In this document: positions 25,859 through 61,194 of the stretch, piece by piece
Numbering within the stretch: the stretch's first letter is position 1
How the letters are laid out: each line of letters starts with the position of its first letter
From: Thereva unica
Lineage: Eukaryota; Arthropoda; Insecta; Diptera; Therevidae
Length of the DNA: 64,000 bases
Direction of reading: 5' to 3'
NCBI GenBank assembly: GCA_949987705.1
Contig: OX465283.1
Coordinates: 164,501,850 to 164,565,849 of the forward strand
Made by a program: the position numbers and the translations under genes
Notes under the pieces: model-generated
Databases searched by the model: none
The model's input: the letters and a program-made list of their open reading frames with translations, nothing else
What the model was told of the DNA's origin: nothing

Positions 25859-28800
25859 TCAGTTTTGTAAAAGTAACTTTAATTGAAAACTTTTCAGGGC
25901 TGTTTCGTCTAAAATGGCTGCTGTTGAAGGTCCCGTTTGGTCAACCAGTTTCCTTAAGTACCCATCGCGACTCTGTAGCAGCGCATGCGGATGAGCCATC
26001 TCCACCACACGTCCAGAATCCATCACTAGAACTTGATCGCTATCCATGATCGTATGAAGACGATGAGCGATTGTTAAAACAGTACAATCCGCGAACCGAG
26101 TCCTTATGGTTTTCTGAATTAGTTTATCCGTTCTGAAATTGATAAGAAAGATTAATATAGTCAGATAAATTCAATTTGTAGCAAGAAATTCAGATATACT
26201 CACTCGGGATCCACATTGGCTGTTGCTTCATCCAAAATCAAAATTCTATTATTCCGCAAAATTGCTCGCGCCAAGCACACCAGTTGTCGTTGGCCCACAC
26301 TGAAATTAGAGCCGCCGTCCGACATTTTGCAGTTCAGTCCTCCAGCTAGAGTTGAGACGTGCGTTTTTAGCTCAACTTCTTCCAGTGCCTTCCACATTTC
26401 GTCATCTTTCTTCGTTTCGAACGGATCCAAATTGTACCGAAGTGTGCCGGAAAACAGAACTGGATCTTGGGGAATAATGGAAATGTTGCTTCGGAGGTCA
26501 TGGAGCCCGAGTTTTGCTATATCAACGCCGTCAATCTTAATCACGCCCTTGTTAATAGCCAATCTGAATAATGCTTGAATGATCGACGATTTCCCAGCTC
26601 CCGTTCTTCCAACGATGCCGATTTTTTCGTTGGGTCTAATGACGAAATTCAAGTCTTTCAGAACGAACTCCCCATCTTTGGAATACCTCAGCGACAGACG
26701 TTCAAATCCTACCTTTCCTTCCCTTGGCCAGTCAGGACTCGGACGATTTGCTGGTGAAGTTTCCAAAGCTCCTTCTGCTGGAAGCTCCGCATATTCCAAA
26801 ACTCTTTCAACGCTGGTCATTTGATTTTCGAGTTCTGCTGTTGATCGCATTCCCCAACCGATCATTCCCATCATGGTCATACATTGTAGAATGGCTAATC
26901 CCACATCACCGCTGTAGAATGTATCGTTCAATATCAAGAAGCTGAAGGTTACTGCACCAAAATACACTATGCAGACGAGATCAAGCCAAAGCGCAAAGGC
27001 CCTAGTTGTGGCCAAATACATAAACCACGCGCGTGTATTTGCGTTTTGGTGATCGTGGAAATCTTGCTCCAACTGCTTTTGCGCATTGAGCGCTCGAATG
27101 GTCGTCAATCCTTGAAAGGTTTGGTTTGTGTGCGAGTAAATCGGACTTCGTGCTAAAAGAGAAATATTCAATAAAAATGGGATTATTTGAAAATTTAAAA
27201 TTTTTACTCATTGCGTCCAATCGCTTGACACTGCGGCTGGTATTTACGTAAATATACCGAAGTCCGTAGAAGAATACTGAAATTATCAATGCCGGAACAA
27301 GAAGATAGTAGTTGGTTATTGCTACCACTATGAGAACTGCTGATGTTTCTGTAAAAAACTGAAAAGACATACTTCATTAACATGCGGGCCTATAACTATG
27401 CAATTAAAAAAACCTGGTATACCTTGCTGCACACATAAGCCAATAGTATGGCGTGCGCCAAAACAATTGGAAATCTCAAAATCGCTTTTCCATTGGCAGT
27501 GAGGGTCCCAAATACCACAGCGAAAGTACATTCGAAAAGAAAAGTGTCACCCCAATTGTTTTGGCGCACGCCATACTATTGACATATGTGTGCAGCAAGG
27601 TATACCGGGTTCCAGCTAGTGATATATAATGTAGAAGTACTTAATTTTCAAACGGGTGAATTTGATTCGCAAAAGAATTAATTTGATTTTCAAATGGGTG
27701 AATTTAATGCGAAAAAACTATAGTTTAAGAACTAAGAGAGTTTACAATTAAAGGGACAATATACTAACCGAAAGACATGCGATTAAAGCTCCTGGTAACA
27801 CTGCATCGACAGAATGAATATCCTTCGAAAATCGATTCAAAATTCGTCCTGAAGCGTTCGTGTTGAAGAAGTACATGCTGGCGCGAGTGATTCCCCTGAA
27901 AAGTTGATCGTGGAGTCTGCGCGATATACGAAGGCACATTCTGAAGAAGCCGTAAGTACGTATCATGTACAAAATAAAGACCACTCCCAGAACTATCCCG
28001 AATGTTTTTACAATGTTCTGACGAGCAGCTGCAACAACTGAACTATCCTCGTTTACAGCACTTTCTTCCCAAATTACCCTGGAAGAAGAATTTTTGTTAA
28101 TATTGCCATAATCGAAAGGAAAAGTCTTACCATCTCGAGATATAGTAGTCAACACCAGTAAGCATGGCTCGACAAACCAGGAACAGAAATATTATGATCA
28201 TAAAGAAGTAGCAGTTGCCCAAAGCCTTGAAATATGACTTATACACTCCAAACTTGACAGATCCGACTGCTTGCAGCTCCTTTCTGTCGTCGCCTTTATC
28301 CTCGGTTGGGCTATCTGTAACCGACTCTGATCGCTTTAGGTTTTCCTTTTGTTTTTCTAACGAATCGCCGCCCTCATCGTGAGTTTGTCCCAAAAACGTG
28401 AACTCTTTGGACATCTGCAACGTCTTGTAGCTGCCCTGGGCTTCTATCTGGCCTGCATTTATCAGAATCAAGTGTTCGACGTCCTTCAAGTACTGCAGTT
28501 GATGTGTCACCAGAATCCGAATTTTACCCTGTAAAAACTCCTTGATGCATTTCTCGTAAATATGCTTCCCGACGTGGGCGTCCACCGCAGAGAGAGGATC
28601 GTCCAGGAGGTAAATATCTGCACTTTTGTAAACCGCTCGTGCCAAACTAACCCGAGCCTTCTGCCCACCGCTTAAACTGATTCCGCGCTCACCAACTATT
28701 GTTAGGTCTCTGTGAGGGAAGAGTTCGAGGTCCTTTTCCAAGGCGCACACGTGAAGAACGTTTTTGTAACGACGCGAATCGAACTCCTCGATGAATACTA

Positions 28801-31800
28801 TATTGTCTTTAATTGTTCCTTCGAACACCCACGGCTCTTGCGGAGCATAACTCAAAGATCCATTGATTTCTACGCGGCCCGCGTCCAGCTCCAACTCGCC
28901 GAGGATGACGTTCAATAGAGTTGATTTACCCGCGCCTACAGGGCCCACCACGGCAGTCAGGGAAGCGTCTTTTATTTCGAAATTGAAGTTGTCAATGGCG
29001 ATGTTATCATTTTCCTCCATATCTTCGCCCCAGGCAGCTGAGGCCTTCTCGAACACGATCTTCTTTTCCTTTGCATTGGGATTGCTGATTCTCTTGGGCA
29101 TTGCTTTGGATTGATCAACCAACAAGTCTTTACCTCGTTCACTTGTGTAGACATCACGTATAATCTTTGGGGATGTTTTTGAATACTTATCAGTCGATGG
29201 TTGCACTTTTCCTTCACTCTCTAACAAAAACTCTGTAACTCGCTTTGTTGAAACGTATGCTTCAGCACAATACGTGATAGCCAGCGGCCAAAAGTTCATC
29301 ATAGACTGGTTGAGTATATTAAAATAAGACGACACCGTAAACACCTTTTGAGCCGTCATAAGGTCCCCTAAATATACATAAGCGACCAAGCTGATAAAAA
29401 TAGAAAACTTCGATATCATAAGCGTCGTCTGGAAGGCCGCATAAATGGATACTGTGCCACGAATAGCCTTGATTTCCCTTTGCCGAACCTTATCGATAAC
29501 AGTAGCAAACGATTTCTCCCAAGCGTACATCTTTATCACTTGTATGCCTTGGATGATCTCGTTCATTAGTTTAACTCGAGTATCTGTTCTCTTTGCTGTT
29601 CTTTGTCTAAAACTGGCGGCTTTTTTGGCACACCAAGCCTGAATGGGGATAAAACTTAACATGAAGGCAATTCCTATCACGGCTGAAATTCCAATCTCTT
29701 GGTACGTGAAATAACATACTATCAAAGTCTCCAGCGGTCCTCGCCACAATTCGTGAAAGAAAGTTAAAGCTACGTCGAATTTTCCCACATCACTTGACAA
29801 TATATTGATGGCCCGTCCAGTAAGTCCTTCGTTTAGGGCCGCTGTTGAGACTCGTAAGCCTTTACGGTATATAAGTCCTGAGCAGGATAGTCTTATCTTA
29901 GTGGCTACTTCGGAAATATAGAATAGGAATGGATGGAATGCGAGACTAGGCACCAGAGAACAAAGAACTATTCCCGCTGCATACAAATAAGCTGAGTCTT
30001 TGCTGATCTCGGTTTGATTTACGGCAAAGTACGAAACAAGTCGACCAAGGCATAATGGTTGAAGAATCCTGAAAGGAAATCATAATTAGCTGAAGGGAAA
30101 AGGATTTTAATTATATTTTATACCGTGCCACTGTCTCTACAAGGCAAAATGCTAGACCTGGAACAATAAAGGCAGCGCCGTAGCCACGAAACAACATTCG
30201 TAAAGAGCTGGGTTTAGGCCTCTTCAGCTCATCTTCCCACAATAATGAGAGCTTCTCTGTAACTTTTGAACTATCTAATGCTGGTTTGTACTCGTACAGT
30301 TCTTCTTCTTTTAATGGGCGATGTAAGCCCTCTTTGAACAGGTCTTTTACCCACCTAAAAGATAGAAAATATACAGTTATTGTTGTGAATAGAAGTAGCA
30401 AATATAAGTTCGAATTTTGAAAATATATAAACATTCTTGAAATACTTGTACTAACGGCCATGGTCCGTACTACCTTCCAAACCTCAACTTGTTTCAAAAC
30501 CCTGCCATTTGTGTGATGTGTAAAACCATGTCATATTCGATCATTTCATTAAAAATAATGGCACTTGTGGGAAATAGTAAAATTAAAACTCACCAATCTT
30601 CTTCTAGTTATATACAACGTTTCCATAACAGCTTGAGTACTCGAAGGCTTGAAAATCTCAAGAACTCGAGCGCGTATATGTTCTGCCTACTTGAAGCGGC
30701 ATATTAGCTTAAACTGAGCTTGAGTTCTTTAGCTGTCATTTGAAGTTACTATTATATTTCTTTTATTTCTTCCTTTTATCGTGCTTTTATTTCTTCATTA
30801 ATATTTTTGTCTCCTCATATTCCCACACATTACCTTTAGACACATTTACAGGCCTAACTTTCGCAATTTCGAGCACTCAAGCTTTCAAGCTCGGTTTACA
30901 TGACAAGCACTCGAGCCGATCACAAAAATTTTTTTGATCGACTCCGGTCGAGCTGCTTGCGTTTACATTTGTACTTGAAGTACGCTTCAAGTAAGCTTCA
31001 AGCTGTCATGGAAACGCACTAATATATTTTGATTAATAATGAGATATACCCCGCGATTTTAGATATTAGATCGTTGCCAGATCTGACAACTTGGCTAAAT
31101 ATTTCGAAAAGAGCTTGCGCGTAAAGTTTTCCCCTTGATTTTGGAGACTTTGAATAGTCAGACTTCCCCTTCAGCAGTCCCATGATTGAGGTTAGGTGGT
31201 GCTTGTTCTTGTTTATGTTTGATTGCCAGCTGCCTCGATATTTCAGACCGCACATGTTGCTCCAGAAGTTGTAAAAGCAGCTACAAAACACACAATTTTA
31301 ACCCGCTTTCACTTAATTTCAAACCCCGCACCAAGATGAACTTGAATAGCGAAATCATCAACAAGACCATCACAGCCACTGACATATAGTAATGGACTGC
31401 TGATTGACAATGCTGAATGGCACCATTTTTCTCCAGAAATAGAAAACCTTTTTTAAGCAAACAAAAAAATTTTCTTCGAGTTTAGGAGAAAATAAGTGAT
31501 AAGATGTTTGTTATAATTAACGGAAATAAATTTCCATCACTCATTTTTATTTATTCGCAGTTTTTTCATTAAATAAATGCATTTATTCCAAAACCGTGAC
31601 GGTTATTTCCCCTGTTTAACGAAGTTTTCAAAATAGCTCAAGAGTGAGACAGAAAAACGAAAACTATACCTGTCTATTTTTTTCTAATTATGTTTATATC
31701 GCTGACATGCGCTGACGATTACAGTTCATTGGGATTTAACGTGGGTGCGAGTCAGGAATAGTTTTTGGTGCCATTTTTTTGTATGGGATTTTGCTCATTT

Positions 31801-34452
31801 AGCAGTCCATTACTATATGTCAGTGATCACAGCCAGCTCGTGAGTCGAGTTGTCAGATTTCTCCATTTCTTAGATTATCCTGACTGAATACCACATCCCC
31901 TCTTTTTCTGACAAAAGCGCATAGTTGGGTGAATTCAAAAATTCAGCACTGCCTCAACACTGCAGAATTCAGCTGCAGACTTCTAATTGCTGAATTCTGC
32001 AGGCAGTGTTGAGTTTTTGCGCCTGTTTAGACGGTTCGCTTCCAGGAGCGTTCCTCACGAACTTTGTGGGTAAAGGGGGGAAGTGGGGATGATAAGAGGT
32101 ACCACCTCACTTCTCCCCTCATCCACAAAGTTCATGAGGAACGCTCCTGAGAGCGAACCGTCTAAACAGGCCCTTTGAATTCACCCGACTTCACCGAAGG
32201 AGCAAGAGCTTTGAGCGTTTCCCCGTTTTCGGACTATAGTCAGATTTCTGTGATCTAGAATCGCGGGGATAGTTATACCTTGTTCGCACTGAGCCGATTT
32301 TAGGTGATCGCTTGGAAAGTGATTTCGAAATTATGTAGAACCGTTCGCACGTACTGGAATAACGTTGCGGCCGACATGGAAGGAGCGGCATCGAGGCACG
32401 AGTACCGGACGCTGTACCAGACGATTCGCCGGTTAGGCGGCAAAACAACATCAACAAACGACAACATCAAAACATCGGATGGAACTTTTGTGACTTCTCC
32501 CCATGAACGCCTGCAGCGGTGGAGAGAATTCTTCCACCAAGCTGTACAACCACGATCCGCCGCCAAGTCCAGCACCCGAACCGCCGATTATCGAACAGCC
32601 GACGAATCAGTTTCTGAATACCGAACCGATAATTGGAGATGAAGATGACAATAAAATCGCTGAAAAATGGAAAAGCGCCGGGAATAGTTCAAGTAACCAC
32701 CGAGATGATCAAAGCGGAGGTGATGTCTTATCACAACGACTTCATGTCCTCATAACATACACATATGGCATTCGGATCGTGTCGCTTCGGCGTGGAAGAA
32801 AACGATCGTTGTGCCAATTTTGAAGAAAGGCGATAGTCAGGAATGCAAGAACTATCGCGGTAAGCCTCCTTTCGATCGTCGGAAAAGTATTTACGAAAAT
32901 CATACAATCGAGGCGACAGAAACATCGAGAGCAAACGAGCCGGAAGGAACAAGCGGGATTTAGACCACATCGAGGATGCATTGATCAAATATTCGCACTC
33001 CTTCAGCTAATGGAAGAAAGAATTCGTTGCGGCGAACGAACTGTCGTCGTTTTCATCGATTTCAAATCGCCCAGTCATACGGGTTGAAAATCAATGCGAA
33101 AAAGACCAAAGTGCTCACAACGGACAGATCAAGGGCCAGTGTTCACTTCGATTGAACCCAAATCCAACAGGTTCCGAGGTTCAAATATTTGGGATTATTC
33201 GTTGAGGAAACGAAAGTAGCATCGACGTCCGACGTTCACAGCCGCATCGGCCAGGCAACAGCAACCTTCGCTTCGCGCAATTGGTGCATATGGAAACGAA
33301 CAAATATTTCCATCAAAACAAAAGTACGCCTTTACCAAACGTTGATCCTTCCGATTCTTCTTTACGGATCTGAAACGTGGACACTGCTCAAACTGGACGT
33401 TAAGAAGCTCGAGGTCTTCCAAAAACGATGCTTGAGGCAGATCCTCGGTGTCTCACTACCCGATCGCCTTCGAAACGAGACAGTCTGACAAAAATGCGAT
33501 CAGCAGACACTGATCGAAGAAGACGTCGCCAAAAACCGGCAAGAGTGGAAACGAATTGTGAATAGAGTTCAAGACCCAGCGGCACCGACAGCAGCGTATC
33601 CGTTACGGGGACGACCCGCTCGGACCACCAGCTAACGGATCAAAGAAGAAGAGCTATAATGGTTTTACGCTGTCTTAAGACAGCTTGAAAATTCTGAAAA
33701 AGGAACCCGGTAGGGCTGTGCAAAGATTGAAAACCACCCTTAAGGACACCTGGATTTTCATGGCACCACAGGAATGCGCAAATCGATTCGCCACAATGGC
33801 ACAGATGATGTCTGATGTTATCAAGTCGAAGGGCGAAGTTACAAAGTGGTGAAAACTGCAGTGGGCGAACTATTATGATATGGAAGTTAATTTGTTTTTT
33901 TTTTTCTTTTTTATTATTTTATTAGTGCTAAACATTTTCGAACTGAATAGAGAATATTTAATTTGTTATATAATAAATATTAATTTTGATTCAAAAAAGT
34001 ACCCAACAACCATTCAGATAACTTTCAAAATTTTTTTTTTCATCGTTCAAAAACGTTTAGGCGAACTATTCTGGTAATTGCTGGCAAAAGCCTATTTCTA
34101 AATACTCTTACACTAATATTTATCTAAAGCTTATCACGGGCAACGCTGTACGGATCTTCCTAGTAATAAATATAACAAGCGGATTGTATGTATTTCCCCA
34201 TTATTAACTACGTACATAATATTCAAAAAGAAATTTCATGCAAATCACTATTTTTTTACAGAAAAGTAAATTTAGCCATCATTCAACATTAATTAATCAC
34301 AACACCACAACAAGTGGCCTTCAACAAACACATGAAAGACCAACTTCAAACAATTAAAAAGCAAGTGCTTACCAAAAGCTCCACTTAGAAAATAAATTGG
34401 CACTAATAACCGGATTTTGTGGCCTAATAATTTTCTTCTTAGTCCGATTCAT
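25859..34452 (-). CDS. ABCC4/MRP4-type ABC transporter, copy 1 (complete, 7 exons, 1310 aa)
   Basis: Exons on the minus strand, 5' to 3': 34373-34452, 30124-30354, 28131-30068, 27769-28078, 27208-27358, 26204-27152, 25859-26132. All borders are GT..AG, phases agree, and no stop occurs before TGA. Layout is TMD1-NBD1-TMD2-NBD2 with no TMD0, and 1310 residues is normal for ABCC4-like proteins. NBD1: Walker [10 protein letters not shown] near residue 479, signature LSGGQ near 569, Walker B IYLLDD near 589; an Asp stands where Glu is usual, as in ABCC NBD1. NBD2: Walker [10 protein letters not shown] at 1085, signature FSVGQ at 1187, Walker B ILILDE near 1207 with catalytic Glu, H-loop IAHRLHTI. 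Closest named fly protein by style is lethal(2)03659. Expected role is ATP-driven export of organic anions, conjugates or cyclic nucleotides across the plasma membrane; the substrate is unknown. Intron 1 (4 kb) and intron 4 hold transposons. Confidence 0.92.
27411..27611. mobile_element. MITE in intron 4 of ABCC copy 1
   Basis: About 57 bp at each end are inverted repeats: GGTATACCTTGCTGCACACA and then CAATAGTATGGCGTGCGCCA on the left, complement on the right, with only a few mismatches. It lies between exons 27208-27358 and 27769-28078. The same intron in copy 3 is only 130 bp, so the insertion is specific to copy 1. Just after it, 27640-27720 has a short tandem repeat with AAATGGGTGAATTT. 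Confidence 0.75.
30615..31019. mobile_element. Inverted-repeat element in intron 1 of ABCC copy 1
   Basis: Left CAACGTTTCCATAACAGCTT and right complement (AAGCTGTCATGGAAACGCAC) are imperfect inverted repeats, with CTTGA/TCAAG motifs repeated inside. TA flanks both ends. No coding frame. Confidence 0.5.
31923..32190. repeat. Nested double palindrome (fold-back element)
   Basis: Outer inverted repeat AGTTGGGTGAATTCAAA / TTTGAATTCACCCGACT. Inside it are two separate hairpins side by side: 31935-32015 (TTCAGCACTGCCTCAACACT against AGTGTTGAG-type complement) and 32022-32175 (CCTGTTTAGACGGTTCGCT, GGAGCGTTCCTCA and GAACTTTGTGG with their complements). Almost every base can pair. No coding capacity. 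Confidence 0.8.
32280..33645 (+). mobile_element. Internally deleted LINE (RT remnant)
   Basis: Plus-strand pieces in order: connector region [20 protein letters not shown] and [15 protein letters not shown], then RT fingers [17 protein letters not shown], a frame change, [24 protein letters not shown], an abrupt jump to [15 protein letters not shown], then [10 protein letters not shown] and the C-terminal [20 protein letters not shown] and [20 protein letters not shown]. The catalytic YADD block is deleted. A short AAGAAGAAG tail ends it. It sits in intron 1 of ABCC copy 1, antisense to the gene. A related C-terminal piece lies inverted at 35540-35930. Confidence 0.75.
33712..33852 (+). pseudogene. 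Possible Tc1/mariner-type transposase C-terminus
   Basis: Open frame [14 protein letters not shown] then [20 protein letters not shown] and EVTKW to a TGA. The pattern L...W......C......M..R/M...VIK.KG..TK* resembles the last 45 residues of Tc1-like transposases. Only this tail remains; no DDE residues are seen nearby. Confidence 0.4.
34373..34452 (-). CDS. First coding exon of ABCC copy 1
   Basis: 80 bp encoding [20 protein letters not shown] followed by FSKWSF, then TG of a split Trp codon and a GTAAGC donor. It joins the exon at 30354 in phase to give FSKWSFW-WVKDLF, the usual start of ABCC4-like proteins. It is easily missed because it lies 4 kb from the rest, but the same exon occurs at 38705-38784 and 61115-61194. 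Confidence 0.88.
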
Positions 34453-34800
34453 ATTTCTTTTATTTTTTTGCTAATTTTTGCTAGTTTTGCTCTTCTATGA
34501 AACTTTCGCTTAAAACTCCAAACAAAATTTCACTATGCACATTCACAATTTCTGATTCCCAATTAAATTTCACTAAATGCGTTGAAACGTTCTTAAACGT
34601 TCTTTAATTTCACACGAAACTAAAAAGCACTTCCGTTCGTCACATTGATTTTTACTAGATTGGCACCTACCCGGCCTTGTATCTACTGTACAGCCCACCT
34701 TCGACTATCACTAAAAGATAGGAGGAATAGTACCCAAATTCACTAACGAATAAATACGCCGAAAAAGCTCTTATTCGGAGAAAGAGAAAAAACCATAACA

Positions 34801-34857
34801 TTACATCACAAGAGATAAGACCAAACGCAATTTCGCAATATTATGTTGGAGCACGTG
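34801..34857 (-). promoter_or_regulatory. Conserved upstream cassette of ABCC copy 1
   Basis: Contains TTACATCACA-AGAGATA, TTTCGCAAT (C/EBP-like) and CACGTG (34852-34857), about 350-405 bp upstream of the ATG. The same three elements in the same order and similar spacing lie upstream of copies 2 (38304-38370) and 3 (61591-61654). Sequence similarity between copies 1 and 2 continues to about 35281. Confidence 0.6.
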
Positions 34858-35539
34858 CCGACGTACGGAATTTCACAATGTTTATTCGCACATAGGTCAA
34901 AAGCCTAGACGCCAAAACACGATCAATCTGGATTTAAAACGGGCATCTTCAGACTTTCTTGGAAGACAGCTTTTGACGCGTGCGCGGAGCGCAGCACTAA
35001 AAACAAAACAAACAGACAAACTGAATTGTTAGAAGATAGCCAAGGTCACTTCAAGATTTTTGTATGAAGAGATCGATTGAAACAACTTAGGTGCAACCAC
35101 CCCTGAGCTTTGGCGGGCGTCGAATCCCAACACGAGTCAAGCTCTACCGAAGACTGAATTTGGAAACCGATCGTTTTTGCGGTCAGTCGGACTTCAATGT
35201 CTAGGTTGGATGTGCTTCAAGAGAGCTTCCGGACTGTTTGTGTTCGAAGCAATCTTACGACATAGATAAACCTTATCTTATTTAAAAATTTTATGGTATG
35301 GCAACACTGTTTATGGTATGTTTTAACCCCTCTAAAATCCTTTTACGACACCTCACTATGTCTTTGTAGAGAACAATATAAAAACAATTGTAGAAGATAC
35401 TAATTTTTGTTTGGTCTATTTGATCGGACGAACACAACCCGTTTTGATTCCACCTATCGACCCAAGCTCGACGTTTATTCCATTCAATGAACATTACCTA
35501 ACTTCAATTATAAACCTGCAAAAAAAAAACTGTTTTTGT

Positions 35540-35930
35540 GTAATTTTTTTACGCTGGGTCTCGAACTCTATTCACGATTCGTTTCCATTCTTGCCGGTTT
35601 TTGGCGACGACGTCTCGAGTCTCGGTAACTGATAACCGTTGATTCTTTAGTTCACCTTCGAAATTCTTTAGCCAGGTTTTCTTCGGTGCCGATCACTGGA
35701 CTCTCCAGCCTGCGGGACGATCTTGCCAGATAAGTTTATTTGGCAAGCGATCATCATCCATTCGGCAAACATGCCCAAACCCCCGTAGTCGACGTTTTTG
35801 CATTTCTTCTTTGATCAGTGTCTGCTGATCGCATTTTTGTCTGACTGTCTCGTTTCGAAGGCGATCGCGTAGTGAGACACCGAGGATATGCCTCAAGCAT
35901 CGCATGTGGAAGCCTATACCAAATATGACA
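35540..35930 (-). mobile_element. LINE fragment (RT C-terminal region)
   Basis: Minus strand: [40 protein letters not shown] and FGHVCRMDDDRLPNKLIWQD, followed after a stop by KNFEGELKNQRLSV and [15 protein letters not shown]. It is the same family as 32280-33645 but in inverted orientation, and truncated upstream. Confidence 0.7.
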
Positions 35931-36467
35931 TGCCATACCGTAGTCGTACGTAGCCTAACGCACGAGCATGAGTGTTCATATGGCACCGAACTAAATGGAC
36001 TTAATGAACTTGTATATGTTCGTTCGTTAGGATACGTACGGTTACGGTACTGCACGTCATATTTTGTTCAGGTTAAAGAGCACTGGATCTCAGACACAAT
36101 CCTGGACAAAAAATAGAACTCACGAGCATTCCTGTGTATAGCCTTCAGCTTCGTTTCCACTTTCCTCCATCCATCCACGTTCTTCACTATGTATCCTAGG
36201 AAGTTTTTCGGTATTAGTTTTGCTTCGGTCATTGCCTCGTTTCTCCCTAAATTCGTTGAATCTCACACCATAAAAAAAGACATGATCTACGTTATTCATA
36301 ACTCACTTCCTCACACTGCTTTGTAAACCATCTCTCCACGTTTGGATAAGTCTAACCAGACTTAACAGACCCTTCGTCCTACCCTTGCTAATCCGTTACC
36401 AACTCGCAGTGGGTTATCTGCGCCGCACTGTATTTGGCTCACCTCCAACATAATGCTTGGTTTTATA

Positions 36468-36686
36468 CCCCGTTTATGACTAGGTTCAACCCAGGTTCAA
36501 CCTAGTCATAAACGGATGTCGAGTCTGGATCCACTCAACCCAACTCAGCTCTTCTACCTGGAGGTTATGTTTTGATATCAGTTCAACTCTATTTCAACCC
36601 AAAGTAAACTCAGCTCGATATCATATACGGTGGTCGAAGTTTCAACTCAACCTCGACTCAACTTTTCAACCTAGTCATAAATGGGG
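36468..36686. mobile_element. MITE with CCCCGTTTATGACTAGGTT termini
   Basis: Left CCCCGTTTATGACTAGGTT and right AACCTAGTCATAAATGGGG are inverted repeats with one mismatch, and TA flanks both ends (36466-36467 and 36687-36688). A related copy is at 7245-7605. Internally TTCAACCC motifs repeat in both orientations. Confidence 0.75.
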
Positions 36687-36699
36687 TAATAGATAAGCA

Positions 36700-37210
36700 G
36701 GTCTCTTCTCGCCCAGTATGTCTCTGCAGATGATCGCTGCACACGTCGCATCGTTGGACATGATCCTGTATGCACAGCACTACAGCACAGATAATCAACT
36801 TCGCCTTGCAACACCTTCGTATGGTATGTGCTCCGATTTCGATGAGTTTGGCCTTGTTGGAAATGGCGCGCCCTCCTGAATTTAGAAATGTCCAGTTTTT
36901 CTGGATTGTACAGCGTTTCTTGCTTCCGATTTTTGGAGTCCCTGGGCCTCGGCATTTTTTGGCCGTTTTTACGCACTTTTGCTATGGTGCTCCGATTTGG
37001 GTGAATGGAAAGGGCTCACGCTCACGAATTCAGACCAGTTGAGTTTGCCAAAAAATACCAAGGGGTTCGGGAGTTATCGACCTCCTCAGAGGAAAATCTA
37101 CTCACCTCCACTGAATTCAGAAAAAGGATCGATTTGTGGTCTCAAGCTAATTATTTAGCCTCACCCTATATAGCTCTTGACCTGCCTGCACTCCCGCGGA
37201 GGGCATGGTG
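36700..37210. repeat. Dispersed repeat shared with 46660-46920
   Basis: The phrase CCAGTTGAGTTTGC, then CAAGGGGTTCGGGAGTTATC and GACCTCCTCA, recurs in reverse orientation near 46.8 kb. The 101-codon minus frame at 36671-36976 has no recognised domain. Probably debris of a larger element. Confidence 0.5.
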
Positions 37211-37249
37211 AACAGCATGAAAATAAAAAAAAATATACGCCATCTGTAG

Positions 37250-37610
37250 GAAAAATGCCACGACCTTTATTTTAAAGTTGCTATTTATTCAAAATGTCCT
37301 CCAAGTGGGCAAAATTTAGCTTCCGATCGATCATCACTCCTTTTCAGTCCACTCTTTAATCTCCAAGATCGCTTCGTTTGCGCACAATTCGATCATATCG
37401 TGGCGTCGTCCTTTGACCCCTACCCCGATGTGGTCCGCGAACCCAAGCGCGAACTGCTCATTTTGGGATTCGTAGCGTCAACACATCGTTTTACATTGTG
37501 ATCCACCGGACAGGGCCCAGGACAGATCCCTGCGAAACTCCACTTGTTGTCCTGTACACCGTCGACCCATCTTCCGGGAGTGAGTTAGATAAAACAGCTT
37601 TTGGGATCAT
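37250..37610 (-). mobile_element. R1-type LINE fragment (RT palm)
   Basis: Minus strand reads EDGSTVYRTTSGVSQGSVLG then GP..., and later the RT thumb phrase GVMIDRKLNFAHLE. SGVxQGSVLGP and YLGVMID.RLNF are hallmarks of the R1 clade. Stops and a deletion remove the YADD motif. Confidence 0.65.
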
Positions 37611-37691
37611 GTTTGCCAAGCAGCGATATTGAAGAATCCATTAACGTTGACAATAATGTTGCTCCTTGTGCGAATATGACTGAAAAAAAGT

Positions 37692-37913
37692 TATGTTAGA
37701 TGGAAAGTAGACGCTGCCCAATGCAATAATAAGGAAGGAGAAGAACTAGAAGAAGTGGAAGATCAGTTTCAATTGCCAACACTTTGTGACGCTCTTGGTG
37801 CAATAGAGGCTTCGCAAAAATGTCTTCTTTTCAATGAAGGGCTTAATATCAATAATCACGAGTTCCTAAAAGAAATGCGCTGCAAAATGGAAAAATATTT
37901 TGATAGTAATTAG
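37692..37913 (+). pseudogene. Possible pogo/Tigger-type transposase C-terminus
   Basis: An open frame YVRWKVDAAQ, then acidic EGEELEEVEDQFQLPTLCDA, then LGAIEASQKCLLFNEG and EFLKEMRCKMEKYFDSN to TAG. An acidic stretch followed by 'LP T..DAL.A...' and a final helix pair resembles the tail of pogo/Tigger transposases. Catalytic part absent. Confidence 0.4.
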
Positions 37914-38303
37914 GGGAAACTAAAATAATGGACGTTTTTAAACACACGAATAAGATAAGGTTTATCTACGCGTTAAGTTTGTTTTGAACACACACAACCC
38001 GGATGATAGCTTTGACGCACCATGTGCAACCTAGACATTGAAATACGACGAACGTTCGGTTTCCAAAATAATTCGGCTCCCATTCATGGTAGAGATCGAC
38101 TCGTGCTGGGATTTGAAGCCGGCCGAAGCTCTAGCTAGCTTTTGACAGTTTAATCTTCTGATTAGGAGAGGTGTTGTGTTTTGGGTACTCCGCGGTCGTC
38201 TTGGAAGCGCGCACTTCTAAGGAAGTCTTGAGACGGGGGCTTGTTTATGCTTGGGCTTTTGACCTATGCGAAGTCATTCATTGTGAAATTCTGTATACGC
38301 AGG

Positions 38304-38370
38304 CACGTGCTTCCAAATAACATTGCGAAATTGTAGTAACACCTCGAGTCTATCTCTTGTGATGTAATGT
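38304..38370 (+). promoter_or_regulatory. Conserved upstream cassette of ABCC copy 2
   Basis: CACGTG at 38304-38309, ATTGCGAAATTG from 38322, and TATCTCTTGTGATGTAATGT at 38351-38370. These match copies 1 and 3 in order. A TATATAA sequence follows at 38451-38457, about 250 bp before the ATG; copies 1 and 3 have lost this TATA-like motif. Confidence 0.6.
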
Positions 38371-38704
38371 GATTTTTTTGGGGAAAAGAGCTTTTGGGGG
38401 TACTTAGTCGTTGGAGCGTTGGAATTTTTACTATAGTCGAAGGTGGGCTGTATATAACACAAGGCTGAGAAAAAAGGTTCTATTATAGCAAGAATTAAAG
38501 TGGTGGGGAGTTCGTATTATTTTCATGTGAAATTAAAGAACGTTAAAACATGTTTAGTATAATTTAATTGGGAAGTAGGAACATACTGTGTTAGTGTACT
38601 TAGTGAAATTGTTTTTATATAAAAAAGGAGTTGGAGTCGAGTTTTAAGTGACAATAGAACAAACAACGTTCATAATTAGCACAAATTAAAAAAAATTAAA
38701 AGGA

Positions 38705-45572
<6,868 letters not shown>

Positions 45573-45744
45573 TAAATTCTCGAAGGTTACTTATTTTTCG
45601 ATGCACTTTAAGCCACAAAAGTATTATGTACTAAGAATCCTCAATATTGCTTAAGATTTTTTCTTTTGTAAATTTTTGTGTTAAGTAAATATTTTTTGTT
45701 TTTATATGTCAAGCAATGTTGCAAACTTAACTACTTTTACCTAT

Positions 45745-46200
45745 CATTGTCCATCTGCTCCTTTAATTTCTCGTGGGACATCGGGCAGAAGCAGTTGCCC
45801 TCCAGCGGACACTGTTTTGTACGAGAGTTGTCAGCTCCGTCAATAATTTCCCAGTTGTTGATGCCGTTGCTAATAAGAGTCTCCTCGACTTTGTTCTAGG
45901 GCTTCCAGCTCGACAAGTTTCGGGATATGTCCGGTCGGTTGAGAGCGCCGTCGATCTCCTTCATTTTCGCACTGAAGTAGTAATACCCATTTTATGCCAC
46001 CTGTTCTACTATCTAGAGCTCTGACAAGGACCTCGTTTATAACTTTGCATTTGGTACAACAGTTCCTAGAGCTTTTATCAATTCTATTATTTTGTGAGGC
46101 AGTCCACGTCACCCTAGTGCCTGCCATATAAAGCTCCTATTAACCGAGTCTAATGCTTTCTCATAGTCTATAAAAGCAAGGTAAAGGGGGGATCGTAATT
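45745..46200 (-). mobile_element. LINE fragment, same family as 48050-49655
   Basis: Two blocks match the 48-49 kb element: GGGACATCGGGCAGAAGCAG with GCAGTTGCCCTCCAGCGGAC, and CCACCTGTTCTACTATCTAG with AAGCTCCTATTAACCGAGTC. The part between is deleted. It begins inside the 3' untranslated homology of ABCC copy 2. Confidence 0.7.
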
Positions 46201-46209
46201 CAGTAGACT

Positions 46210-46659
46210 GCTCCTAGCCAGACAACCAAACTCCTATCCAAACTCCAAACTACAATCTAACTACATACCATTAAGCCCGTTGAACTGAAGTTCGGCCAAG
46301 CTAGGCTTTGACGTGCCTTTTAACTAGGATACAGGATCTTGGCTTACCTTATTCAGAACGATTGTAAAAGGTGTTTGTTGTTGCCTGGCCGAGAGACCCA
46401 TCATGTTCCATCCTTTGTTTTTTGTGGCCATTTTGGAATGTTGGAAGTTGATGTGCTTGATTTCAAGTCACTGCAGGCACCCCACACCCTCAAACTCAAA
46501 CCCGCCACCAGTTCAGTTCAGACTACGAAACTCCTTCTATGCGGAAAGGCTTTTAAAACTATTCAGTTTAGCTGCATCTTAGCTGCAGATGGCTCTCATT
46601 CTTCTCCAATATCTTGAGGGACTTCTCGCTGATTTAGGAGAAGGAATGTAATGCTCTTC
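46210..46659. other. No gene recognised
   Basis: A 92-codon frame (46339-46617) has no motif I know. The setting between LINE fragments suggests transposon debris. Confidence 0.35.
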
Positions 46660-46920
46660 TTTAGCGGTTCCTTTGCTTTAATGACATCCATAGGAACCGC
46701 AAGATTTTGAGCCTAGAGACACTGGAGAAGCTTTCCCGGCTCAGTAAATTTGCTTTAACCAGACCTAGAGCACTGCTCAGGATATCCGCAGCTGGGATGG
46801 AGGTGAATAGATTTCCCTTTGAGGAGGTCGATAACTCCCGAACCCCTTGGAATTTTTTTTTTGCAAACTCAACTGGTCTGGATTCAGCAGAGCGAGCCCT
46901 TTCCAACGAGGCATCATTGC
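46660..46920. repeat. Dispersed repeat shared with 36700-37210
   Basis: In reverse orientation it carries the same phrases (GGAAAGGGCTC, CCAGTTGAGTTTGC, CAAGGGGTTCGGGAGTTATC, GACCTCCTCA). About 110 bp are clearly shared. Confidence 0.55.
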
Positions 46921-47072
46921 TTAAAATTAATTATTCTATATTACATATTAGGTATTTTGCAGCAATTCCGTTTTCAAATCTTGTTGTTTGGCGTTTATAT
47001 TCAATTTTAGACAATAAAAACCTATTCCCAAAACAAAATAATACTGCCAAATTTTATAAATTACATAAATTC

Positions 47073-47922
47073 ACTTAAATAAACCTTAAATAAGTCAAAT
47101 TAACTACTTAAATTAAAGAAATTCCAAAAAAAATTATAATTTTCAATTCCTGAAATCTCAAAAAAATGCAGAAGAATCATGCTGATAAAAACTCAGTTTT
47201 TAGGCCGTTTTGCGTTATCGTCAATAATCGTTATTAAGCCTATTATTATTAAATAAGTACTATTTACATATTCTATTATATTTTTAATAACTTAAAAACA
47301 TAATTTCACCATTTTTTATTGTTTAATTTAATCAAAATCAATAAAATAAACTTCTGAAATTATTAAACGTGGAAAATTGCATATTTTTAAGAGTTTAATC
47401 TCTAATCATGACTGAAAAATTCACGTTTTTTGATATGCACAGGGATCCTCTATCTAATGGATAAATTTACAATGTCAAGTTTTGCATATTTGTATGAGAA
47501 AACTTCGACACTTCGCATTGTAATTTCTGACATATCATACAGGATCCGCGCGGTTACTGAAAAACACCCTCGTTATTTCAATAAGCAGTAGACTCCTACA
47601 GCTATGCAAGTTTTTACTATTAGTGCTATTTGATAACTTCAGAAGTTTATTTAATTGATTTTGATTAAATTAAACAATAAAAAATGGTGAAATTATGTTT
47701 TTAAGTTATTAAAAATATAATAGAATATGTAAATAGTACTTATTTAATAATAATAGGCTTAATAACGATTATTGACGATAACGCAAAACGGCCTAAAAAC
47801 TGAGTTTTTATCAGCATGATTCTTCTGCATTTTTTTGAGATTTCAGGAATTGAAAATTTTCATTTTTTTGGGAGATCTTTAATTTAATTAGTTAATTTAA
47901 CTTATTTAAGGTTTATTTAAGT
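47073..47922. mobile_element. Fold-back element with ~290-bp inverted arms
   Basis: Left arm 47073-47363 (starting ACTTAAATAAACCTTAAATA) and right arm about 47630-47922 (its reverse complement, ending at TTTAAGT) pair along their whole length, including GCAGAAGAATCATGCTGATA and AACGCAAAACGGCC. Arms differ by only scattered bases and small indels. The 266-bp middle is unpaired and has no frame. It lies between ABCC copies 2 and 3. Confidence 0.85.
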
Positions 47923-48049
47923 CACGTCCACGCCTTCGATGTTATAACGAGCGCGAAAAAGTTATATCCAAGATTAAGGGCACTGAACATGTTCATTTTC
48001 GATGGGCAGAGCTAAATTAGTGGACTCTTGTTTAAGTATTGGTCCAATA

Positions 48050-49655
48050 AATGCTCTTCTTCTTCTTCTTCTCTAAACTCCTTTCATCCCTCATGGGACA
48101 TAGGGCGGAAACAGTCGCCCTCCAGCGGACTCTGTTTTACGCGGACAGCTCTTAGCTCCGACCAGGATCTCCCAGTTGTTGCGGCTTCTGCCAGTAGGGT
48201 TCTCCTCCACGTTGTGTCTAGGTCTTCCTACTCCACGGGATCCTTGCGGATTCCAGTCAAGGGCCTGTTTGGCTAGATTATCGTTTTCGCGTCGCAAAGT
48301 GTGGACAACCCAATTCCATTTCCTTCGCCTGATTTGGTCGTCTATCCTTTCTTGGCCGGCACGGCGCCATAGTTCTTCTTTTGAAATTCGATCTTGCCAG
48401 GGGATTTTTACGATATGACGCAGACACCTGTTGATGAAGGCTTGTAGGCGCCCTATGATGAATTGGATGACATTCCATGTTTCGCAACCGAACAAAAGAA
48501 CTGCCTTAACGTTGGAGTTGAACAGCCGCAATTTAGTGTTAGCGGAGATCTCCGTTGATCTCCATATTCGGGACAGGCATGCTTATGCGCCACGTGCTTT
48601 ATTTTTTCTGTAACTGACGTCTTCTTCTGCCCCACCATTTTCGGTAACGATGCTACCGAGGTATCAGAATTTATCTACCAGTTCCACGTCACGGTTATTC
48701 AGCACTGTCCGTTTAATGGTGTTTGCATTTATCCGCATTTCTTTTGTTTTATTCGGATTTAGCCTTAAGACTGCTGGACTACTTTCTGTTGCCAAATTGT
48801 AAACATGTTTTTGAGGTCCTGGTGTCTGAGGGCCAGCAAGCAGATATCATCGGCGTAGTCGAGATCCTTAAGGCGGTCTAGCAAACCCCATTGTATGCCG
48901 CCTGTTCTACTATCTAGAGCGCCGACAAGGATGTCATTTATTACTATAAGAAATAGTAAAGGCGAGAGTAGGCATCCTTGTCGTACTCCTGAGCTCACCT
49001 CGAAGCTGTCGGATAATTTTCCATTATGGAGAACTCTGCATTTGGAATTGTTATATAGGGCTTTTATCAATTCTATTATTTTCTCAGGCAGTCCACGTCG
49101 CCGTAATGCCTGCCAAATGAAGCTCCTATTAACCGAGTCGAACGCTATCTCATAGTCTACGAAAGCAAGGTAAAGGGCGGATCGGAATTCAGTAGACTGC
49201 TCCACTATTATTCTCAAGGTGTTAATATGATCAATACAGGAGCGGCCCTTCCTGAATCCGGCCTGCTGCCTCCTAAGAGTTCGGTCTACTGACTCACTTA
49301 TCCTAGATGGTAATATATGGGACAAAACTTTGCCCACAGTAGATAGTAAACAGATGCCTCTCCAGTTGTCGCATATTGTTAGGCCCCTCTTTTTTGATAT
49401 TTTGACTATGATACTTTCCGTCCAATTCTCCGGAAAGGTACAGGTGTTCCATGCTATATCTAGGATTGGCTGAAGCGAATCTGCTATGAGGCTTGAGTCG
49501 GCTTTCAACAATTCTGGCGGGATGCCATCTTTCCCAGCTGCTTTACCATTGGCCATCGCATGAATTGCGGTTACTATTTCCGTCTTGGATGGGGCCCGAG
49601 TGGCGATTCTTATTGGTTGCGCATTGATGCTGTTTTCCTGAGGTTCGTGTGTAAG
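48050..49655 (-). mobile_element. LINE, reverse transcriptase half (5'-truncated, frameshifted)
   Basis: The minus-strand frame 48765-49556 (263 codons) carries a nearly complete RT: NGKAAGKDGIPPELLKA, YCP-type fingers altered to NWRGICLLSTVGKV, QAGFRKGRSCIDHI, AFVDYEIAFDSVNR, GVRQGCLLSPLLF and the catalytic LDYADDICLLA. After a frameshift the C-terminal region continues at 48091-48531 (GCETWNV, DRISKEELWRRAGQERIDDQ, ALDWNPQGSRGVGRPR). The 3' end is a GAA/CTT microsatellite (48055-48075), a common tail of some LINE clades. Fragments of the same family are at 12985-13320, 45745-46200 and 57795-57990. Clade (CR1/RTE-like) uncertain. Confidence 0.8.
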
Positions 49656-49973
49656 CGAACCATTCAGGGCGGCGAAGAAGTAGGGGCAAACTCACTTTTG
49701 CATAAATATTTAATAAACGTAAACCGGCTACGAAATATCAACCAGGGGCGCAAACATATATATGTAATAAAACAACTTAAAACATGTTTTGTACATATAT
49801 TCGATATAAAAACAATTTTAGAAAGTTCTAACTTGGTCTTTCCCCGCGGGTGGTTACAACCTGCAATGATTCCTCACCTCTCGACCCAAGCGTTCCATTT
49901 ATTTCATGCAATGAGCATTACTTAATTTTAATTAGCCTAGAGCTGAAAAAAAACCTGTTATTGTGTAAAATTT

Positions 49974-49979
49974 TTTATT
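49974..49979 (-). terminator. Likely poly(A) signal of ABCC copy 3
   Basis: AATAAA on the minus strand about 240 bp after the stop, in sequence homologous to the 3' end of copy 1 (TGTCGTAAACAATCGTTAAG). Confidence 0.6.
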
Positions 49980-50216
49980 GCTTGTCTGATCACATATTGT
50001 CGTAAACAATCGTTAAGTACGATATGTAAAAGTAGTTAAGGTTCCAACATTGCTTGACAAGGAATTGGTGTAAAATTAAGAAAAAGAACTGCTTACTTAA
50101 AGCTTAAAACAAAAATTTACAAAAGAAAACGTTCTTAAACAATAGGGAGGATTCTTATTACATAATACTTTTGTGGCTTAAAGTGCATCGAAAAATAAGT
50201 AACCTTCGAGAATTTA

Positions 50217-61194
<10,978 letters not shown>

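What the first reader, a model, noticed from the sequence alone, without database searches (positions are those of the whole stretch)
25859..61194. Three complete ABCC4-like pumps in a head-to-head / tail-to-tail cluster with hidden first exons
All three copies have the same 80-bp first exon 1.3-6.7 kb upstream of the obvious frames. When it is joined, each copy gives a single in-phase protein of 1309-1313 residues. Gene finders that start at the long frames would report truncated genes. Alternating orientation (-,+,-) implies inverted duplication rather than simple tandem duplication.
Basis: partly seen in the sequence, partly recalled or inferred. Interest (0 to 1): 0.75.

Follow-up and report, generated by a model that had tools for sequence, protein, structure and literature searches.

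The report
Three copies of a fly pump gene
A fly carries three complete copies, arisen in its own lineage, of one known type of ABC membrane-pump gene; this is a common sort of gene-family growth, with the twist that a few residues of the predicted substrate pocket differ between the copies.

Summary
Three seven-exon ABCC4-type genes lie at 25859-34452 (-), 38705-45572 (+) and 50217-61194 (-), each with an 80-nt first coding exon, GT-AG introns and one open frame: 1310, 1309, 1313 residues. The exon-1 peptide is genuine: 115 of 120 listed homologs have it aligned. Best hits are dipteran proteins, among them Drosophila CG11897/red dog mine, tied to zinc tolerance; strict orthology is unsettled. 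The copies form one clade, ((A,B),C); no other close copy was found. Pairwise dN/dS is 0.11-0.17.

Two readings are weaker. 'Hidden' is overstated, since databases mostly include this exon. Alternating orientation does not require inverted duplication; inversion of the middle copy would also give it.

New here: the residue matching pocket residue Q994 of human ABCC4, Q in 116 of 120 homologs, is G in A, E in B, Q in C. C looks conservative; A has the highest dN/dS. This suggests divided substrate ranges, but pocket enrichment is weak (P 0.12 and 0.019). Mostly an ordinary new member of a known kind.

The parts
34373..34452 (-). Copy A exon 1 (80 nt)
   Evidence: peptide aligned in 115 of 120 homologs
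30124..30354 (-). Copy A exon 2
28131..30068 (-). Copy A exon 3 (TMD1, NBD1, start of TMD2)
   Evidence: Pfam ABC_membrane and ABC_tran
27769..28078 (-). Copy A exon 4 (TMD2)
   Evidence: ABC_membrane
27208..27358 (-). Copy A exon 5
26204..27152 (-). Copy A exon 6 (end of TMD2 with TM12 pocket, NBD2)
   Evidence: Pfam
25859..26132 (-). Copy A exon 7 with stop
38705..38784 (+). Copy B exon 1 (80 nt)
40115..40345 (+). Copy B exon 2
40401..42335 (+). Copy B exon 3
   Evidence: Pfam
42388..42697 (+). Copy B exon 4
   Evidence: ABC_membrane
44072..44222 (+). Copy B exon 5
44279..45227 (+). Copy B exon 6
   Evidence: Pfam
45299..45572 (+). Copy B exon 7 with stop
61115..61194 (-). Copy C exon 1 (80 nt)
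54208..54438 (-). Copy C exon 2
52206..54152 (-). Copy C exon 3
   Evidence: Pfam
51845..52154 (-). Copy C exon 4
   Evidence: ABC_membrane
51564..51714 (-). Copy C exon 5
50560..51508 (-). Copy C exon 6
   Evidence: Pfam
50217..50490 (-). Copy C exon 7 with stop
34453..38704 (.). Head-to-head region between A and B; duplicated upstream stretches reach about 0.83 kb (A) and 0.76 kb (B) from the ATG at 67-73% identity
45573..45745 (+). Copy B 3' flank; homology to A and C stops here, next to a LINE-like repeat, and the AATAAA-bearing tail of A and C is missing

Best explanation
A single ancestral dipteran ABCC4-type gene, most similar among named fly genes to rdog/CG11897, was duplicated twice, with introns and upstream sequence, in the lineage of this fly, giving three complete full transporters (two TMDs, two NBDs). 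Shown: gene models, single origin, ongoing purifying selection, intact nucleotide-binding motifs. Inferred: each is an ATP-driven membrane exporter of organic anions or metal-glutathione-type conjugates. C, which keeps the conserved pocket residues, holds the ancestral role; A and B, whose pocket residues changed at positions matching human 367 and 994 (and 363 in A), handle partly different substrates or simply have relaxed specificity. The NBDs are asymmetric as in other ABCC proteins (recalled rule): NBD1 reads LLDDP, NBD2 LILDEA.
For: Gene models. ABC_membrane and ABC_tran in exon 3 and again in exon 6 of all three. With copy B as query, ABCC4/MRP4 is the best solved relative, 1035-1071 bits, ahead of ABCC2 at 793. 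Best database hits are dipteran, 60-63% identity for P0001-P0024; P0020 is named red dog mine and P0021 CG11897, most others l(2)03659-like, MRP4 or ABCC4. One clade at 100 support, A+B at 99. Only three close copies found in the genome. dN/dS 0.165 (AB), 0.163 (AC), 0.113 (BC). Introns kept and upstream homology mean DNA-level duplication, not retrocopies. Walker A, signature and H-loop motifs present in all three. rdog knockdown sensitises fly cells to zinc and zinc induces it (PMC5919732: abstract, outline, passages). Human Q994, L363, L367, W995, R998 contact ligands, and R946, Q994, W995 and R998 mutations most affected methotrexate transport (PMC10202912, PMC11948813: passages). Window residues at 994 are G/E/Q, at 363 Q/D/D, at 367 N/V/H; W995, R998 and R946 unchanged.
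Against: No expression data. The tree does not place the window clade inside the clade that holds P0020 (rdog of Haematobia); nearby supports are only 82-88. Metal-response-like TGCRCNCG is not enriched (5 in the window, 6.45 expected), so a zinc role rests on similarity alone. Pocket change is not enriched at the 2-state level (5/14 vs 117/606, P 0.12) and weakly at the 3-state level (2/14 vs 8/606, P 0.019, uncorrected). The three copies already differ from human in common at 152 and 324 (F, T), and many fly homologs do, so the human pocket map transfers only in part.
Confidence: 0.86

Rival explanations
1. The copies are functionally redundant: dosage amplification only, with the pocket changes neutral drift.
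For: All three are under purifying selection; pocket enrichment is weak; ABCC expansion by duplication is reported for Tribolium (PMC3560195 passages).
Against: A residue that is Q in 116 of 120 homologs changed in two of three copies, to two different residues; copy A has higher dN/dS than B (0.22 vs 0.10; reversed in 0.2% of 2000 bootstraps).
Confidence: 0.45
2. Copies exchange sequence by gene conversion (perhaps helped by inverted orientation), which homogenises the NBD-coding parts and leaves the TMDs to diverge.
For: dS is uneven: 0.02-0.28 in 60-codon windows of exon 2 (31-90), NBD1 (541-600) and NBD2 (1081-1140), 0.5-1.7 in windows 301-390 and 931-990. Silent-site patterns are heterogeneous (P 0.008), with a B=C run of 8 sites at codons 777-815 (P 0.014).
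Against: P values are uncorrected; the longest runs of the other two pairs are not significant (A=C P 0.29, A=B P 0.16); uneven dS can reflect codon constraint; no outgroup DNA was available.
Confidence: 0.3
3. Copy A is on its way to decay (relaxed constraint) rather than gaining a role.
For: A has 82 odd-one-out residue columns against 34 in B and 60 in C, some at sites conserved in at least 94% of 33 top homologs.
Against: Omega 0.22 (CI 0.17-0.30) is well below 1; frame, junctions and motifs are intact.
Confidence: 0.15

Closest known systems
Drosophila rdog (red dog mine, CG11897) and similar dipteran proteins
   Same: 60-63% identity over nearly the full length for the 24 best hits; same N-terminal peptide style MNRT..K..RP.NP..AN..S.WSFWW
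   Different: Three copies here; A and B changed the residue matching human Q994, which is Q in 33 of 33 top-ranked rows examined; tree does not place the window clade inside the rdog clade
Condylostylus longicornis three-copy set (P0003, P0034, P0035)
   Different: Separate duplications; all three keep Q at the 994 site; orientation not seen
Human ABCC4/MRP4 (8bjf and others)
   Same: Same domain order from the N terminus; best PDB match
   Different: Pocket positions 152, 156, 324, 363 and 367 differ from human in all three copies
Tribolium ABCC expansion on chromosome 5
   Same: ABCC growth by local duplication (PMC3560195 passages)
   Different: 35 ABCC genes; the table rows seen are runs of same-strand neighbours

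Membership tests
ABCC4-type full ABC transporter | Two ABC_membrane and two ABC_tran domains in one chain | tested here: met
   Pfam: both in exon 3 of all three and both again in exon 6 of all three; further ABC_membrane in exon 4
ABCC4-type full ABC transporter | No N-terminal TMD0 (short N terminus as in MRP4) | tested here: met
   Copy C residues 11-389 align to human ABCC4 9-394; A and B have the same N terminus
ABCC4-type full ABC transporter | Closest solved relative is ABCC4 | tested here: met
   Copy B: 1035-1071 bits vs 793 for ABCC2; pieces of copy C likewise; A not searched
ABCC4-type full ABC transporter | Degenerate NBD1 (D in place of catalytic E), canonical NBD2 | tested here: met
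   NBD1 IYLLDDP, NBD2 ILILDEA in all three; the rule itself is recalled
rdog (CG11897) ortholog group | Groups with rdog rather than with other fly ABCC4 paralogs | tested here: inconclusive
   Window clade sits in an 18-row group (87) with Condylostylus, mosquito and sand-fly rows among others, outside the 18-row group (88) that holds P0001 and P0020; both are separated at 100 from a nine-row clade of other l(2)03659-like proteins (42 of 120 homologs used, quick method)
rdog (CG11897) ortholog group | Zinc-induced and zinc-protective | not testable with these tools
   No expression data; no enrichment of TGCRCNCG

The most novel reading that the evidence does not exclude
The three copies have divided the substrate range of one ancestral pump: C keeps the ancestral pocket, while A and B acquired distinct pocket chemistry through changes at a near-invariant TM12 position (human 994) and at TM6 positions, with the NBD engines kept alike by purifying selection and perhaps gene conversion.
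Probability: 0.35. Interest if true: 0.45.

Novelty: new member of a known kind. Interest (0 to 1): 0.25.

Why it matters
If the pocket differences are functional, the cluster is a compact natural experiment on how ABCC4-type pumps change specificity: one conservative and two altered copies, about 8-12% different in protein, in one genome. For annotation it confirms that the short N-terminal exon should be sought in genes of this type.

Tried and rejected
Zinc-response elements: no enrichment of TGCRCNCG (5 vs 6.45 expected; the motif is recalled). Assembly duplicate or alleles: rejected by dS 0.31-0.38. Retrocopies: rejected, introns and upstream homology kept. Further copies elsewhere in the genome: none close. 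With exon 3 of copy B as query, the next match by score is 48% identical over 264 residues; short pieces (38-93 residues) reach 50-63% (68 of 78 candidates scored, counts are lower bounds). Gene conversion: only suggestive. Same first-exon split in other ABCC4 paralogs of this genome: four 9.9-kb stretches fetched; L010 has one matching peptide, read straight through with no intron there; one hit in L011 looks like chance; L009 and L012 gave none. Dating and Drosophila intron positions: no fly genome DNA was available. Structure prediction was not run (1200-residue limit for a single protein). Literature: (0 papers); I make no claim of absence in print.

Full report
Repeat search shows three copies, one on the + strand flanked by two on the - strand. 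Exon 1 aligns in all three with the same donor site, and a pattern drawn from it occurs at exactly three places in the window with none in shuffles. Splicing by script gives seven coding exons per copy, 18 of 18 introns GT-AG, and proteins of 1310 (A), 1309 (B) and 1313 (C) residues with no internal stop. Junctions were chosen by homology and GT-AG, so the shared open frame is the stronger evidence. Exons 1, 2, 4, 5, 6 and 7 have equal length in all copies; exon 3 differs by whole codons (1938, 1935, 1947 nt).

The first exon is real coding sequence. Of the 120 homologs listed (of 3057 found), 115 have the exon-1 peptide aligned and 5 do not (P0025, P0029, P0097, P0112, P0116). A stricter motif matched 83 of 120; 32 of its 37 misses still have the peptide in variant spelling. 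One other ABCC4 paralog of this genome reads through the same spot without an intron.

Identity. With copy B as query the best solved relative is ABCC4/MRP4. The best database hits are dipteran proteins, led by Episyrphus balteatus at 63%, and include entries named red dog mine (P0020, P0029) and CG11897 (P0021). A quick maximum-likelihood tree of the three copies with 42 of the 120 homologs puts the three in one clade (100), with A and B as sisters (99). The wider placement is weak (82-88), and the window clade is not inside the group that holds P0020, so strict orthology to rdog is unsettled. Condylostylus has its own three-copy set. In the fly's own genome no other close copy was found. CG11897, CG11898 and CG10505 were placed in one clade in an earlier study (PMC4234516, passages). 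rdog knockdown sensitises fly cells to zinc, and zinc induces rdog (PMC5919732: abstract, outline, passages).

Selection. Pairwise dS is 0.305 (AB), 0.378 (AC) and 0.360 (BC), dN/dS 0.165, 0.163 and 0.113. Split by branch, omega is 0.22 for A, 0.10 for B and 0.12 for C (C includes the stem); A exceeds B in all but 0.2% of 2000 bootstraps. Relative-rate tests against three outgroup rows: A versus C significant in three of three (P 7e-5, 4e-6, 0.03); A versus B in one of three (0.21, 6e-4, 0.16); B versus C in two of three (4e-4, 0.04, 0.29).

Pocket. Fourteen residues that line the human ABCC4 pocket were taken from two papers (PMC10202912, PMC11948813; passages) and mapped through HMMER alignments. 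Nine of 14 are the same in all three copies; seven of these also match human (211, 368, 946, 991, 992, 995, 998). Five vary: 994 is G (A), E (B), Q (C); 363 is Q, D, D; 367 is N, V, H; 990 is M, M, I; 156 is L, L, I. Q at 994 is found in 116 of 120 homologs and in 33 of 33 top-ranked rows. That subset was chosen by hit rank (P0001-P0035 less P0025 and P0029), so it includes Condylostylus rows and leaves out two Calliphora rows (P0043, P0053) that the tree puts with P0020. Against other TMD columns the excess is not significant for any change (5/14 vs 117/606, P 0.12) and weak for three-way difference (2/14 vs 8/606, P 0.019); both uncorrected.

Duplication mode. Upstream homology reaches about 0.83 kb (A) and 0.76 kb (B), and about 0.43 kb (A) and 0.49 kb (C); downstream homology reaches about 0.26-0.29 kb for A and C and about 0.17 kb for B. 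The copies are therefore DNA-level duplications carrying upstream sequence. Orientation alone cannot choose between inverted duplication and tandem duplication with a later inversion. Uneven dS and silent-site patterns hint at gene conversion, but the tests are weak.

Copy B lost the end of its 3' region. Homology to A and C stops about 170 nt after the stop, a few bases before a repeat whose other copy overlaps a reverse-transcriptase frame. The conserved tail is found only at A and C. No AATAAA or ATTAAA lies within 420 nt of the B stop, while A and C have such signals. B may end its transcript elsewhere; untested.

The pocket divergence is the part worth a test.

Noticed in passing
45573-46214: Copy B's 3' flank ends next to a LINE-like repeat whose other copy lies at about 48.1-49.2 kb; B lacks the AATAAA-bearing tail kept by A and C.
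   Followed up: partly
48765-49691 (-): Reverse-transcriptase open frame (PF00078, E 3.4e-27) between B and C, of LINE type by its look.
   Followed up: partly
58525-60448 (-): Open frames in intron 1 of copy C; 58956-59579 matches reverse transcriptase (PF00078, E 4.6e-12), 59825-60448 matches no Pfam family, 58525-59070 was not scanned. An insertion here could explain the 6.7-kb intron.
   Followed up: partly
47123-47873: Inverted repeat with 245-nt arms 98% complementary, 261 nt apart: a fold-back element, by its look recent.
   Followed up: no
27411-27611: Inverted repeat (60-nt arms, 95%) inside intron 4 of copy A, MITE-like.
   Followed up: no
97-536: Tandem array, 122-bp unit, 3.6 copies.
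   Followed up: no
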